Shown: piece by piece, positions 40,274 through 46,830 of the stretch
Layout of the letters: each line of letters begins with the position of its first letter
Position numbering within the stretch: position 1 is the stretch's first letter
Source: Pascua guehoae
Taxonomy: Eukaryota > Basidiomycota > Tremellomycetes > Trichosporonales > Trichosporonaceae
NCBI GenBank assembly: GCA_001600415.1
Contig: BCJX01000013.1
Coordinates: forward strand, 600,777-664,776
Reading direction: 5' to 3'
Length of the DNA: 64,000 bases
The notes under the pieces: model-generated
Seen by the model: the letters and a program-made list of their open reading frames with translations, nothing else
Told to the model about the DNA's origin: nothing
Databases searched by the model: none
Translations under genes and position numbers: made by a program

Positions 40274-43200
40274 ATGCTCCGCCTCCCACTTGCGCGCGCG
40301 AGCGCGCGTTGCACGCAAGCTCCATGCCGCCACCTCTCGCAGCTCACCAAGCCGAAGCCCGCCACGGCCAAGAAACCCATCGTCATCCCCGCCGCCCCGG
40401 CCATGGACCCGAGCTTTGCACCATACTTCGCCGTGGGGGACATGCAGCTCGGCCGCCGCCCCCGTGCCGCTGCCACCGGTGGGCCAAGTGAACCTCGGGC
40501 TCCAGCAGAGACGCCGCCTCAGCGGCCTTCCAGCTCGGCCCTCGCCGAGGCAGAAAACGAAGACGGAGACGATGCAGAGGACAACTATGAACGGCGACCG
40601 GAGCGTCGTTCGCCCGCCGCCGTCCTCGGGACCAAGAACCTTGGCATGGTCATCCTGCCCCGACAGCTCATGACCAGCGTTCAGGACTTGATTGATGGTG
40701 CGTGTTGTGGATTGAGGAGGCTGAGTCTATTGTGGAAGAGGGCGTAGGCTATTGCCATTGGAGACACGGCCCTGTTCAGGCCTAGGCAAGGTCGGGAGAG
40801 CTGTAGCTCGACCAGAGACTACGAGACGAACTGAGATCCTTCCATCTGGTTCGCCTCTGGTCCTTTCCCATCATTACTGCAGACATCTCTGGCGTCATTC
40901 TGGCCTGTCTCTGTCTCTTGATTTCATTCTCAGTCTCTCAACAAACCCACACCTTCCATCGCTGTCGCCACCCTCTTCCAGTAGTCCCGTCATGTTCCCA
41001 CGGCTCCAGATCCCCTTCCACTGGACCAGCACTCGCTAACCACCAGAAAGCGACAGCCCCAAATGGGTTCGCGCCGCGTACAAGGAGCTCCTCGCTCCTC
41101 CGAAGCGGAAGGAGCCGGGCGGCTCACTGAACCTCCCCGATCACGCTGTCGCACGCGCCGCCGCCATCCTTCCCGGACAGTATGCGGCTATGCGAAGTGT
41201 GCTTGGTGAGATGCGTGCTCGACTCGGTTTTATTCCGGGACCTGTGCTCGAGGTCTCCGCAGGGCTGGGCCCCGGACTTTGGTGAGTGGGCTTGCTGGAG
41301 GCGTTGGGCAGTGGTATGGCGTCGTTGAAAATGGGGTGGCGATGTGGACGCAGCCGTCTGTCTACTTGAGCGAGTACTCGCGATTACACAGGGGCGCCAG
41401 TCTGAGACTACGATCTCCTGTGTCGTCGGTCATCTGCGTCATACAGCCCCTGGGTTCCTAATTTCAGCACCCAACTGACCTACAGGGCAACACACGAGAC
41501 GTTTGGGACGGATATCACTGCCAACTCCCAGCTTGTTCACCACACCCGACACGGCCTAGAAGTCGCCGAGCGCCTTGCCGCGCCGCTCAACGACAACTGG
41601 TCGTTCAGGCGTGACATGTCAAAGTCGGACGTAGCACCCGGAATCGTGCTCTCGACCTTCCACTTGTCAACACTACCCAAGCCCGCCAACCGGATTGCGC
41701 ACCTGCGCCAAATTCTTGCGACTGATGCACAGTACATGGTCATTGTGGACCGCAGCACCCCGGAAGGCTGGGCAGCCATCACCGAGGCGCGCGACTTCTT
41801 CCTCACCGGGAGGAAGAAGGGTGCACCGCCCATGGGTGACTGGCACGTCATCGCCCCGTGCCCACACGACGGAACCTGCCCGCGCACGACGATTGACAGC
41901 GAGGAGGGCTGCGTATTTGCGCAGCGTCTGCAGCGTCCGACGTTCCTCCGTAAGACAAAGCACGGCAAGCGTGGCGAGGAGTCGAGCGGGTACGCATACC
42001 TCGTCGTCGCGCGTGGTGCGCGGCCACAGACGAAGCGTGGGGACGCGTTGCTGCGCCGTGCCGGCCGTGTGGGCGGGATCGGGAACGATGAGGCGGCCAA
42101 GCAGGCGCGCATGGGACACACTGAGCTCCGCGAGGTTGAGGGCGGAGAGGGCGAGTTTGAGATGGTCGCGGTTGTCCCCGAGGGCGTCGAGGCGGCCCTC
42201 CAGACCATCGAGGACAAGAAGGAGGATCCTACAAAGGTCGACAGCGCGCTCAAGGATGAGGCGTATGGATGGCCACGTCTCGTGGCCCCGCCCATGAAGC
42301 GGAGCGGACACGTCGTGATCGACGCGTGCATGCAGGATGGTGAGTTGCGTGTGCATGACTTCTCACTGGGTGTGGCTAGCACTCTATCCCTTCGTTTTCG
42401 TTGTCAATAAAATCAAGTCTGACAGCAGGCACCATTTCGCGCTTCCGCGTCGCCCGCTCGCATGGCAAGCAAGCATTCTACGACGCACGCAAGTCAGCCT
42501 GGGGCGACCTGTTCCCGCACAAGGCAAAGGGCAAGCTGGAAGTCCGGACGCGTGGCGTGCGGGACCTCGCGCCGCAGACCGCGGAGGAGATTGAGAAGGA
42601 GGCCGAGAAGAAGGTTGAGAAGGAGGAGGAAAGCGTCGAGGACATTCTTAAGCGCTTCGGGGCCAAGCCAGTGTTCGCCGAGCTCGTCTCGGAAAACGGT
42701 GCTGCGGACGAGCCGACGTCTGGTGAAGCCGGTGACGTGCAGGGCACTGAGAGCAAGGCTACATCTGGAACGTCATCGAGTACCACCATGGAGGTCCCGG
42801 AGACCGCGGCCGAGGGTGGCGCAAGCGATGCGGCCAAGCCACAACCAGGCGTCGGACGTGGGCGTCGCCGTCGCACAAGCTCGACACTGTTGACAAATGT
42901 GCGGAGAGAATACTCGACTTCTGCGGCGCTTTCGTCACTCGCTCCGTTCTCACGCTCATTCTCCACGTCACCCTCGGTGGGCTCGGTTCACGGCCCGATG
43001 CAGATCGGCAGTGGACCTTCTGCTCGACCAAAGTTGACAGTGGGCGCCCTGCAGGCCATGCACGACGCAGGCACACCCATCTCGGTGTTGACTGCGTACG
43101 ACTACGGGATGTCGCTCGTGTGCGCGCGTGCTGGAGTGGACATTTTATTGATCGGCGACAGCCTGGCGCAAGTCCACCTCGGCCACGCGACGACCGTACC

Positions 43201-43951
43201 TTTAACGCTGGAGGAGGTCGCGCACCACGTCCGAGCCGTTGCCCGTGGAGCAGGCTCGAGCTTTATCCTCGCCGACATGCCGTTTGGGTACGCCGAGGCG
43301 TCGGTGGCTGATGGCGTCAAGGCGGCGGTGACGCTGATGAAGGCGGGCGCGGACGGGATCAAGCTCGAAGGAGGCCTGGAGCACGTGGCCCTCTTCCAGC
43401 GTCTGGCCGAGTGCGGCATCCCGGTCATGCCTCACATTGGCCTCATGCCCCAGCGCGCCACGGTGACGGGATACAAGGCGCAGGCGCGGCGTGCGTCGTC
43501 CGCACTCGAGCTTGTCGACACGGCCGTCGAGCTCGCCGAGGCCGGCGCGTTTGGCTTGCTGCTCGAGGCGATCCCGCCCGTCGTCGCGCGGGAAATCACC
43601 CAGCGCGCGGGCATTCCCACAATCGGTATCGGCGCCGGAGCAGACACGAGCGGTCAAGTGCTCGTCACCACCGACATGTGGGGCACATACGACATGCGCA
43701 CCGACGCCGAAGCGGCCGCCGACGTTGTTGACGGCGTCGACGGCGGCAAGCCCCAGGTGCCCAAGTTTGTCCGTGAATTCGGCGCTGTGGGCCGCGAGAT
43801 GCGCCGCGCCGTCGACGCATTCAATGTCGCCGTCCGCGATCGCTCGTTCCCACAAAAGGGCGCAGAGACGTACGGGATGCCAAAGGCCGAAGTGGAGGCG
43901 TTCCTCGGCGCGCTCAAGCAGAGGGATGCGGACGGTGCCGCACCCGAGTGA
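40274..43951 (+). CDS. Rsm22 (METTL17) - ketopantoate hydroxymethyltransferase (PanB) tandem protein
   Basis: Four phase-consistent exons (40274-40697, 41047-41281, 41486-42339, 42429-43951) give one 1,011-residue protein. Residues 1-545 are the mitochondrial ribosome small-subunit assembly factor Rsm22/METTL17: presequence MLRLPLARASARCTQAPCR, SPKWVRAAYKELL, a methyltransferase-like fold (GPVLEVSAGLGPGLWATHET), the Cys cluster CPHDGTCP / EGCVFAQR linked to an iron-sulfur site, and SHGKQAFYDARKSAWGDL. Residues about 705-1011 are PanB, which adds a hydroxymethyl from methylene-tetrahydrofolate to ketoisovalerate in pantothenate synthesis: LLIGDSLAQ (Asp748), LADMPFG (Asp787), IKLEGG (Glu818), LLLEAIPP (catalytic Glu884). 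The 160-residue linker has no stop and carries a second presequence-like stretch (LLTNVRREYSTSAALSSL) with an R-x-Y/S processing-type site at about 669-672. Two separate proteins by internal cleavage are likely. Confidence 0.9.
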
Positions 43952-44638
43952 CCGGCGCACGCGCGGGCGACAAACTAGGACTCGAGAGGCGATTTAATTG
44001 TACCTACACCACCCAAAACGTACACACGTACGATACTACCACCATCAGCACGGATCATTAGCACTGTTCATGCATCGCATCTTTCTTGAGTGCCCCACGG
44101 GATGCGGCGGGCCATGAGTGACGGGTAGGCGTGGACACGTCGCCTTCCGCTGCCTTGTTCAAATGGCCGTAGACGTGGCCGCAGTGATGAGTACGGAATT
44201 AGCTGTCGCTGTGCTCGATATGCGCGACATCGATAAAGTCCCACCCATGTCCTGCCGGGACTCCCGAAGACATGAATGAGATGCGACCAGCCTGGCCGAT
44301 CAGAGGAGCAAGTGGTGCGCTCTACGCAAGGCGTCTGTCACTACCGTGGACAAAGTTGCAAAGCGTACAATGCAGCAATACCATACTCCACACTCACCAC
44401 ACCAGAGGCCTTGCTCTCCTCCTTTGTACTTTGTTCACCTTCAGACCTGATCTATCCTCGGTCGCATGCGGCTCCCTCTCACGCCCTCAATCGCGCCCTC
44501 GCCTCTGCACTACCAACAACGGCGATGCCAACCCCACAACCGGGGTTGTCCGCATCACCGGGCTCACCGGCCTGTCCCGGCCTCCAGGCTTGTCTCCGCC
44601 CCCTCCCCTTGGATTAGGGGGGAGCAGCAAAAAAAATA
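43952..44638. other. 3' spacer after Rsm22-PanB
   Basis: No gene was recognised. Plus-strand ORFs at 44272-44673 lack motifs and run into the tRNA. A T-run on the minus strand (44630-44637) ends the adjacent tRNA transcript. Confidence 0.5.
44629..44637 (-). terminator. RNA polymerase III terminator of tRNA-Lys
   Basis: A run of eight T on the minus strand begins two bases after the tRNA 3' end. Confidence 0.8.
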
Positions 44639-44731
44639 AGCCCATTATGGGGCTCGAACCCATGACATTTTGATTGCTTACACGCTGTTGGTAGTAAGAG
44701 TCAAACTATCTACCGACTGATATAAACGGGC
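44639..44731 (-). tRNA. tRNA-Lys (anticodon CTT) with a 20-nt intron
   Basis: On the minus strand the 5' acceptor arm GCCCGTT pairs with AATGGGC. The D arm TATC/GATA encloses AGTCGGTA; the anticodon stem TTTGA/TCAAA encloses CTCTTA plus A, with a 20-nt intron directly after position 37. The T arm ATGGG-TTCGAGC-CCCAT is perfect. The discriminator base is U, as in yeast tRNA-Lys(CTT). A TTATTTTTTTT tract just after is the RNA polymerase III terminator. Confidence 0.93.
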
Positions 44732-45148
44732 TTGTTAAAGAGGGCCGTTAGGGTGTATATGAGGAGATGTGTGGGTGTGCCTGACATTTCGAGTGGACGT
44801 CGAGACCGCTCTGGTCCTCATGACGACTTTTTTTGGGCGAGTCAGGGCTAGGCCGGAAGGCTGGCTCCGGCTGCTGGCTGGCATGGCTCGATCTGGTTCG
44901 AGCACCAGACAGGCCAGCACCAAACAGGTCCTCTTTCACGGATTTACTCCCTGGCTGGCCATTGTTAGTCTTGCGCGGCTCTCCGCTGCACCTTGTTCTC
45001 GTCCCATGCAAGCGAGCATCAGACAACCCCTCGCCGCATCCACAATACTTGCTAGACATGCATCAGGTGAATGACACGTACAAAAACATATGTTGAAAAC
45101 CTCACTGCTGACCCGAGCTCGACTGTACTCTATTTTGGGGGGGTGCGC
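44732..45148. other. Spacer between tRNA-Lys and serine hydroxymethyltransferase
   Basis: About 420 bases with no gene seen; includes the 3' UTR of the minus-strand hydroxymethyltransferase gene and a G7 run near 45136. Confidence 0.5.
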
Positions 45149-46830
45149 TTAGTCGAAGCGCTTGATGTTGGCGGTGTCGGGGACACCGGGCAAGGGGTAT
45201 GCGACGGAGACTAAGAAACGGCGTCAGTGGATGGGGGAGAGAGTAGTAGGGTTGCAAAAACTCACAGTCCTTGACCTCCTGCTTGAGCTGAGCGACGTCC
45301 TTGGCAATGTCGCCCTGCTGGTAGGCCTTGATAAAGTCCTTGAGGAGCCTGGAGCCGGCGGCCTTCTGGGCAGCGAGCGAGATCTGGACGACGCGGTGGA
45401 GGAACTCGGCAACCTTCTCGACGTCGGCCTCCTTCATGGAGCGCGAGGTGAGGGCGGCAGTGCCGACACGGACACCACCGGGAACGGCGGCCGACGTGTC
45501 ACCGGCGACGGCGTTCTTGTTGAGGGTAATGTGGACGGCGTCGCAGATCTCGGTGACCTTGGAGCCGGTGAGGCCAATGGGGCGGAGGTCCCAGAGGATG
45601 AGGTGGTTGTCCGAGCCGTCGGTCTGGAGCTTGTAGCCGTGCTTGAAGAGGACGGCGGCCATGGCGGCCGAGTTTGCGCGGACCTGCTTGGCGTACTCCT
45701 TGAAGGCCGGGGTGGCGGCCTGCTTGAGGGCGACGGCGATACCGGCAATCGTGTTGTTGTGGGGGCCACCCTGGCAGGCGGGGAAGACGGCGTTGTTGAC
45801 GCGCGACTCCATGTCGGCCTCCTTGTCCTTGCGGAAGAAGATGAGACCGGCACGGGGGCCACGGAGCGTCTTGTGCGTCGTCGTCGCGACAACGTCGCAG
45901 ACCTCGAAGGGCGAGTCCTGCTCGGCGGCAGCAACGAGACCCGAAATGTGCGCCATGTCGCACATGAGGTAGGCACCCTGCTTGTCGGCGAGCTTGCGGA
46001 GACGAGCATAGTCCCAGTCACGGGGGTAGGCCGAGCCACCGCAGACAATCAGGCGGGGCTTGTAAATGTTGGCGTTGGTCTCGAGCTGCTCGTAGTCAAT
46101 GTAGCCAGTCTCGGGGATGACGCGGTAAGGGAACGACTGGAAGTAGATGGCCGAAGCGGTAATCTTCTTCTTGGCAGTGTAGTAGCCGTGCGTAAGGTGG
46201 CCACCGTCGGGGAGACCAAGACCCATCACGCGCTCCTGGGGCTGGAGGAGGGCGGTAAAGGCGGCAAAGTTGGCAGTCGAACCAGAGTAGGGCTGGACGT
46301 TGACGCCCCACTTGGCAGGGTCGAGGTTGAACGCCTTGAGGGCGCGCTCGCGGGTAAGGTTCTCGAGCACATCAATGTGCTCGTTGCCGCCGTAGTAACG
46401 GTTGCCGGGGAGACCCTCAGAGTACTTGTTGGTGAGGATCGAGCCGTTGGCCTCCATGACCGCGAGCGAGGTCAGGTTCTGTGCGGGGCGTCAGTGCACC
46501 GCGGGTGGGTTGGGTGGGTAGGCGACGTGACGTCGACACCTAAAAAACGGAGTGACAAACTCACCTCGGACGCAATGAGCTCGAGACCCGAGAACTGGCG
46601 CCAGGTCTCCTTCTCAATGAGGTCGTTGATCTCGGGGTCGGTCTCCGAGAGAGGCTCGTAGAGCATCTTGTTCTGCGGGGGGGTGTCAGCATACTGATAG
46701 CACGTAGTCTGGTGGGTGCCGAGCACATGGTGCGCAGTGTGGGGGTACGGGGGTAGGGTCAAGGTGACGCGGGCAGGGTGTGTGTGGTAGGACTTACAAA
46801 GTCGTTGGGGACGGGGATAGAGGACGACAT
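45149..46830 (-). CDS. Serine hydroxymethyltransferase, cytosolic form
   Basis: A 471-residue PLP enzyme that interconverts serine and glycine while forming 5,10-methylene-tetrahydrofolate. Four phase-consistent exons: 46798-46830, 46565-46672, 45266-46478, 45149-45210. It shows the family landmarks [59 protein letters not shown] and [16 protein letters not shown] with the PLP lysine at 250, then [18 protein letters not shown] and [11 protein letters not shown]. The N-terminus ([15 protein letters not shown]) has no presequence, so it is the cytosolic isozyme. Size is normal for the family. It is convergent with the gene encoding PanB, an enzyme that uses its folate product. Confidence 0.97.

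What the first reader, a model, noticed from the sequence alone, without database searches (positions are those of the whole stretch)
40274..43951. Rsm22 and PanB encoded as one tandem mitochondrial precursor with an internal presequence
One uninterrupted frame (exon 42429-43951) runs from the conserved C-terminus of Rsm22 through a 160-residue linker into a complete PanB with all catalytic residues. The linker holds an Arg/Ser-rich, acid-free segment with VRREYSTSA and PFSRSFSTSP, which looks like a second targeting sequence with a processing-type site. Known parallel: in fission yeast Rsm22 is fused to Cox11 and the tandem precursor is cut inside mitochondria. A second, different partner would suggest Rsm22 repeatedly serves as an N-terminal carrier, and would tie mitoribosome assembly to pantothenate/CoA synthesis by fixed stoichiometry.
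Basis: partly seen in the sequence, partly recalled or inferred. Interest (0 to 1): 0.9.

Follow-up and report, generated by a model that had tools for sequence, protein, structure and literature searches.

The report
Rsm22-PanB fused mitochondrial precursor protein
In a group of basidiomycete yeasts, one gene encodes a mitoribosome assembly factor and a vitamin B5 enzyme as a single chain that still carries what looks like a mitochondrial signal and cut site between the two, much like a known tandem protein of fission yeast.

Summary
A four-exon gene (40274-43951) encodes 1011 residues: Rsm22, a linker and a complete PanB, with no stop between them. It is not a one-off: 41 of 45 hits of a full-length search carry both domains, and the named ones are Tremellales or Trichosporonales, Cryptococcus neoformans, Tremella and Kwoniella among them. 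Naganishia, Phaffia and Agaricomycetes show PanB as a separate protein. Many unfused PanBs have a presequence ending RxMSVRP; 26 of 40 fusions keep the same element inside. R-x-[FYLM]-[SAT] sites occur in the last 70 linker residues of 39 of 40 fusions, against 81 of 464 other 70-residue windows. So the linker is most likely PanB's old targeting and processing signal, kept after the fusion, and the product one imported precursor cut into two enzymes. The cut is inferred, not shown. Stoichiometric coupling of mitoribosome assembly to CoA synthesis is untested. A further find: in two sequences of unnamed sources Rsm22 is fused to an acetylornithine-aminotransferase-like enzyme, with a similar site at the joint. 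That would be a third Rsm22 partner, after Cox11 in fission yeast and PanB here. My searches of a partial library found no paper on the PanB or ArgD fusion.

The parts
40274..40697 (+). exon 1: start codon, N-terminal presequence-like stretch (residues 1-44 without D/E; R-H-L-S at 19-22), start of Rsm22
   Evidence: gene model; acid-free run and hydrophobic moment; RHLS position
41047..41281 (+). exon 2, Rsm22
41486..42339 (+). exon 3, Rsm22 core incl. cysteines C345, C351, C362 and C501
   Evidence: the four Cys columns are invariant in 21 aligned fusions
42429..43951 (+). exon 4: Rsm22 C-terminus, linker, complete PanB, stop
   Evidence: the same stretch is open in a near relative, P0163
42554..42829 (+). 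acidic, variable Rsm22-side tail (about residues 547-638)
   Evidence: indels, and 71 of 91 identical to P0163 over residues 553-659
42836..43024 (+). internal presequence-like segment, residues 641-703, rich in R/S/T, one acid (E665)
   Evidence: residues 641-671 identical in P0163
42902..42916 (+). candidate processing site 1, R-R-E-Y|S (663-667)
42953..42964 (+). candidate processing site 2, R-S-F|S (680-683)
43025..43948 (+). PanB (ketopantoate hydroxymethyltransferase), residues 704-1011
   Evidence: Pfam PF02548 706-980; solved PanB structures matched

Best explanation
The gene is a fusion of RSM22 and PANB shared by Tremellales and Trichosporonales. It makes one mitochondrial precursor. 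The N-terminal presequence of Rsm22 imports the chain (inferred). The former N-terminal presequence of PanB remains inside as a linker with, as a rule, one to three R-x-[FYLM]-[SAT] sites, where the matrix processing peptidase cuts (inferred), freeing Rsm22 with an acidic tail and a normal mature PanB. Shown here: the single open frame, both domains, the conservation of the fusion, and the kept site-bearing segment. Not shown: the transcript, the import and the cut.
For: 41 of 45 hits of the full-length search carry PF09243 + PF02548. Of the 120 listed PanB-profile hits, 8 run from the Rsm22 C-terminus through a linker into PanB and 7 more have 100 or more residues before PanB. R-x-M-S-[AV]-x-P lies in the last part of the linker in 26 of 40 fusions; of the 61 listed hits P0222-P0282, 36 have nearly the same motif in their first 110 residues, and 34 of the 37 of these with at least 45 residues before TAYD (N-termini printed). 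R-x-[FYLM]-[SAT]: one or more in the last 70 linker residues of 39 of 40 fusions and two or more in 25; mean 1.77 against 0.20 per 70 residues elsewhere in the same proteins; in 31 less similar representatives 54 sites, against a mean of 8.9 and a maximum of 19 in 2000 shuffles. A near relative, P0163 (PanB 293 of 305 identical), keeps 641-671 unchanged while the acidic part has indels. The only Met of the window linker upstream of the sites, M625, is missing in P0163, whose only other upstream Met lies far back in the acidic tail. Over the linker the coding frame scores best of the six frames (+0.16 per codon) and alone has no stop. The model of the Saitozyma fusion has two folded parts separated by 527-625 with pLDDT under 50. 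One Rsm22 and one PanB found in the genome.
Against: No RNA or protein data. Segment 641-703 taken alone has poor codon log-odds (-0.20 per codon; parts of the trained coding sequence +0.09 to +0.43, noncoding -0.35 to -0.40), and GC3 is lower in the linker. No amphipathicity beyond shuffles in the internal segment (p 0.47), while the acidic tail scores high. The site pattern was chosen after seeing the linkers. 14 of 40 linkers have one site and one (P0028) has none; in P0004 and P0007 one of the two counted sites sits among acids upstream. By the same pattern only 18 of 40 of the proteins' own first 60 residues have a site, though several of those models are partial. 14 of 40 fusions, the window included, lack the RxMS[AV]xP form.
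Confidence: 0.82

Rival explanations
1. The fused chain is imported but not cut: it works as one bifunctional protein, with PanB tethered to Rsm22 and so to the assembling mitoribosome.
For: Both domains are recognised by Pfam and, in the Saitozyma model, separated by a disordered linker. A long-kept fusion would fit a joint function.
Against: Site-type motifs are kept in 39 of 40 linkers although the rest of the linker varies, and many match the presequence end of unfused PanB. The S. pombe Rsm22 tandem is cut (passages).
Confidence: 0.08
2. Besides the tandem precursor, an internal promoter or downstream AUG (M695 here, the M of RxMSARP in others) makes a short cytosolic PanB.
For: R-x-M-S-[AV]-x-P, with its Met, is in 26 of 40 fusions and in 36 of 61 listed hits P0222-P0282. 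M695 is kept in P0163.
Against: 14 of 40 fusions lack the motif, the window included. A Met next to the cut site is equally explained by the processing site.
Confidence: 0.2
3. Gene-model artefact: two adjacent genes whose frames happen to be joined.
For: Annotation can merge neighbours (P0007 carries an extra bZIP domain). Codon signal is weak in 641-703.
Against: The exon is one open frame in the raw sequence. The same stretch is open in a near relative with in-frame indels, and the fusion recurs in 41 hits from several sources.
Confidence: 0.03

Closest known systems
Rsm22-Cox11 tandem protein of Schizosaccharomyces pombe (Khalimonchuk et al. 2006, not held, nothing of it seen; described in passages of PMC12375894 and PMC4381221)
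   Same: Rsm22 with a second mitochondrial protein in one chain; by those passages cut after import. That Rsm22 is the first half there follows from the name and recall
   Different: Partner is PanB, a vitamin enzyme, not the membrane protein Cox11; distant clade; cut not yet shown. Cox11 is a separate unlinked gene here
Arg5,6 tandem precursor of yeast, cut internally by MPP (Friedl et al. 2020, not held; passage of PMC8847149)
   Same: Two mitochondrial enzymes from one precursor through an internal processing site
   Different: Arg5,6 joins two enzymes of one pathway (recalled); here the two functions are not known to be linked
Rsm22-ArgD fusion (P0042, P0046; unnamed sources; found here)
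   Same: Rsm22 first, metabolic enzyme second, R-G-F|A-T at the joint
   Different: Partner is an acetylornithine-aminotransferase-like enzyme; the joint is only a few residues long
Unfused PanB of Agaricomycetes, Naganishia and Phaffia
   Same: Same enzyme; in many, the same RxMS presequence end (not in Phaffia)
   Different: Separate protein, presequence at the N-terminus

Membership tests
Mitochondrial tandem precursor of the Rsm22-Cox11 kind | Two mature mitochondrial proteins in one uninterrupted reading frame, Rsm22 first | tested here: met
Mitochondrial tandem precursor of the Rsm22-Cox11 kind | N-terminal presequence on the whole precursor | tested here: met
   residues 1-44 without acid, charge +7 over 1-45, hydrophobic moment above shuffles p 0.03; by sequence only, no predictor was at hand
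Mitochondrial tandem precursor of the Rsm22-Cox11 kind | Internal presequence/processing site before the second protein | tested here: met
   site motif in 39 of 40 fusions and likeness to PanB N-termini; amphipathic helix not significant
Mitochondrial tandem precursor of the Rsm22-Cox11 kind | Cut inside mitochondria into two proteins | not testable with these tools
   needs import assay or N-terminal proteomics
Mitochondrial tandem precursor of the Rsm22-Cox11 kind | One transcript across the junction | not testable with these tools
   no RNA data
Rsm22/METTL17 | PF09243 domain and the four-Cys motif | tested here: met
   E 1.6e-44; C345, C351, C362, C501, columns invariant in 21 fusions; a four-Cys motif binding a [4Fe-4S] cluster is from the passage, the match of these four to it is my reading
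PanB | PF02548 over the profile length | tested here: met
   positions 1-258 of 259, E 3.2e-83; five solved PanB sequences matched
PanB | Catalytic and metal residues | tested here: met
   D748, D787, K816, E818, H840, E884 located by motif; the matching columns are invariant in 21 fusions. Their roles are recalled from E. coli PanB work, not from a call

The most novel reading that the evidence does not exclude
Rsm22 is a recurrent N-terminal carrier: at least three fungal lineages have hung a different mitochondrial protein (Cox11, PanB, ArgD) on its C-terminus, each time with a cut site at the joint. Something about Rsm22 (import route, tolerant C-terminus, or regulated supply during mitoribosome assembly) would favour this over other mitochondrial genes.
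Probability: 0.35. Interest if true: 0.75.

Novelty: new variant of a known kind. Interest (0 to 1): 0.6.

Why it matters
It would turn a curiosity of fission yeast into a pattern that can be tested: the same ribosome assembly factor leads tandem precursors with three unrelated partners. It also shows how a gene fusion can survive when the second protein's old targeting signal becomes an internal cut site. In this genome, where one PanB and one Rsm22 were found, PanB could not be deleted or silenced through this gene without touching mitochondrial translation, so single-gene phenotypes need care. Database names are already affected: many fusions are listed as PanB alone, and an Rsm22-only protein bears the PanB name (P0144).

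Tried and rejected
Considered and set aside. (1) Artefact of neighbouring genes: rejected on conservation. (2) A hidden intron in the linker: a scan of 42429-43100 for GT[AG]NG[TC] gave three GTGGGC and no GTAAGT or GTGAGT; other donor forms were not scanned. (3) A separate PanB start upstream of the presequence: M625 is not in the near relative, and 19 of 39 linkers with a site have a Met within 40 residues upstream. (4) Amphipathic helix test of the internal segment: negative. (5) Fusions as one clade: the free PanB tree puts Naganishia, Phaffia and an unnamed separate PanB inside the fused set with weak support (93/82), but one clade of all fusions is not rejected (p-AU 0.384). One origin, one origin with a later split, or two origins remain open. 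The tree also draws Cryptotrichosporon, by taxonomy a member of Trichosporonales, among Tremellales with weak support. (6) Papers: Rsm22 + ketopantoate hydroxymethyltransferase 0, Rsm22 + Cryptococcus + pantothenate 0, Rsm22 + Cryptococcus neoformans 0, pantothenate + mitochondrial + gene fusion + Tremellomycetes 0, Rsm22 + acetylornithine aminotransferase 2, on other subjects by title; listings only, passages for five papers. The library lacks most subscription papers.

Limits: one search scored 7994 candidates; one search listed 120 of 254; one search listed 120 of 7928. Of 42 fused proteins (41 hits + window) 40 entered the site statistics; P0003 and P0006 were dropped because the boundaries could not be located. 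The PanB tree used 47 rows, a chosen subset. No fungal DNA of relatives was fetched, so no dN/dS was computed. A denominator of 50 wrongly counted the window itself; one search gives the right counts.

Full report
The gene. Joining 40274-40697, 41047-41281, 41486-42339 and 42429-43951 gives an intact 1011-residue protein with Rsm22 (PF09243) and PanB (PF02548). In the genome (33.6 Mb, 28 contigs) no other copy of either was found (six-frame search, best candidates only). PanC and Cox11 are on other contigs. The Rsm22 part keeps four cysteines and the PanB part its active-site motifs. Those columns are invariant over 21 fusions.

The fusion is shared by two orders. Full-length search: 41 of 45 hits have both domains. 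Named ones are Cryptococcus, Kwoniella, Tremella, Naematelia, Saitozyma, 'Tremellales sp. Uapishka_1', Cryptotrichosporon, Trichosporon, Vanrija and Cutaneotrichosporon. Taxonomy for four of them is looked up (Saitozyma and Naematelia Tremellales, Vanrija and Cryptotrichosporon Trichosporonales); the rest is recalled. The other four hits are Rsm22 + aminotransferase (P0042), Rsm22 only (P0043), PanB only (P0044) and PanB + PanC (P0045). Outside this set the proteins are apart in what I saw. 116 of the 120 listed Rsm22-profile hits carry Rsm22 only; the other four are P0042, P0046, P0047 and the fusion P0022. PanBs of Naganishia (Filobasidiales), Phaffia (Cystofilobasidiales) and Agaricomycetes are short proteins, most of them with their own N-terminal presequence; two of the three Naganishia entries start too late to show one. 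Rsm22 of Naganishia and Phaffia was not among the listed hits, so I did not see it. In seven Agaricomycetes that I matched by eye between (Obba, Phanerochaete carnosa, Cubamyces sp., Rhizopogon vinicolor, Heliocybe, Artomyces, Paxillus ammoniavirescens) the listed longest contigs of the two genes differ, so they do not look like neighbours there. In the PanB tree the window groups with the Trichosporon/Vanrija/Cutaneotrichosporon set (100/99). One clade of fusions is neither shown nor rejected.

The linker looks like a kept presequence. Unfused PanBs begin, for example in Ceratobasidium, MLPRVFVSLARRSQVRWMSVRPEAKE..RKKIT. Fusions have the like inside, for example ..GQKRSYSTLTSTRSTSRPKASPLVQTRSMSARP..KPKAT in C. 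neoformans. Upstream lies an acidic, variable tail. R-x-[FYLM]-[SAT] occurs in 39 of 40 PanB-side 70-residue stretches, and 25 of 40 have two or more. Elsewhere 81 of 464 windows (17%) have one. The pattern was set after reading the linkers, so the exact enrichment is somewhat flattering; the shuffles of 31 representatives (54 against at most 19) leave room, though related sequences are not independent. In the window the two sites are RREY|S (663-667) and RSF|S (680-683). A near relative, P0163, is identical over 641-671 while the acidic part has indels. Against: no amphipathicity beyond shuffles, noncoding-like codon use in 641-703, and only 18 of 40 own N-termini match the same pattern.

Mechanism. 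Import by the Rsm22 presequence, then matrix processing at the inner sites, giving two proteins. This is inferred from anatomy and from the S. pombe Rsm22-Cox11 case, of which I saw passages in two later papers, and from internal MPP cuts as described in a passage of a third. The model of the Saitozyma homologue shows two folded regions and a disordered linker (mean pLDDT 63, pTM 0.40, so only the broad picture counts).

A third partner. P0042 and P0046 (82.8% identical) join Rsm22 to a class-III aminotransferase. For P0042 the best NCBIfam match is acetylornithine transaminase, TIGR00707, E 1.6e-113 but below its cut-off. The joints read ..VVRRRGF|ATAS.. and ..VIRQRGF|ATSA... Two different sequences with the same joint argue against a chance merge, but their organisms and transcripts are unknown. 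P0047 (Postia) has Rsm22 with a weak mL40-type tail (E 3e-7); this may be a merged model.

Verdict. A real, conserved, and in my searches undescribed tandem precursor; a new variant of a known kind. The stoichiometry idea is untested.

Noticed in passing
P0042, P0046, unnamed sources: Rsm22 fused to an acetylornithine-aminotransferase-like enzyme with an R-G-F|A-T site at the joint: a further Rsm22 tandem.
   Followed up: partly
P0047, Postia placenta: Rsm22 with a C-terminal MRP-L28 (mL40) match: a further partner or a merged gene model.
   Followed up: partly
P0007, Cutaneotrichosporon sp. HIS471: The fusion model is 1722 aa and carries an added bZIP domain, probably a merged neighbour gene.
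   Followed up: no
P0015 and P0034: The Trichosporon asahii model lacks a stretch of linker, with sites, that a near-identical sequence keeps: possibly a false intron in the annotation.
   Followed up: no
P0144, Favolaschia claudopus: An Rsm22-only protein is named 3-methyl-2-oxobutanoate hydroxymethyltransferase, perhaps a name carried over from the fusions.
   Followed up: no
PMC5955198, passage: A table describes a Candida albicans PanB-type gene (C1_00510W_A) as having orthologs with a role in both pantothenate synthesis and respiratory complex IV assembly; I do not know where the second role comes from.
   Followed up: no
window 44638-44732, minus strand: A tRNA-like gene with an unclear anticodon, perhaps containing an intron.
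   Followed up: no
window 45102-46490, minus strand: A long open frame that looks like serine hydroxymethyltransferase (read, not searched).
   Followed up: no
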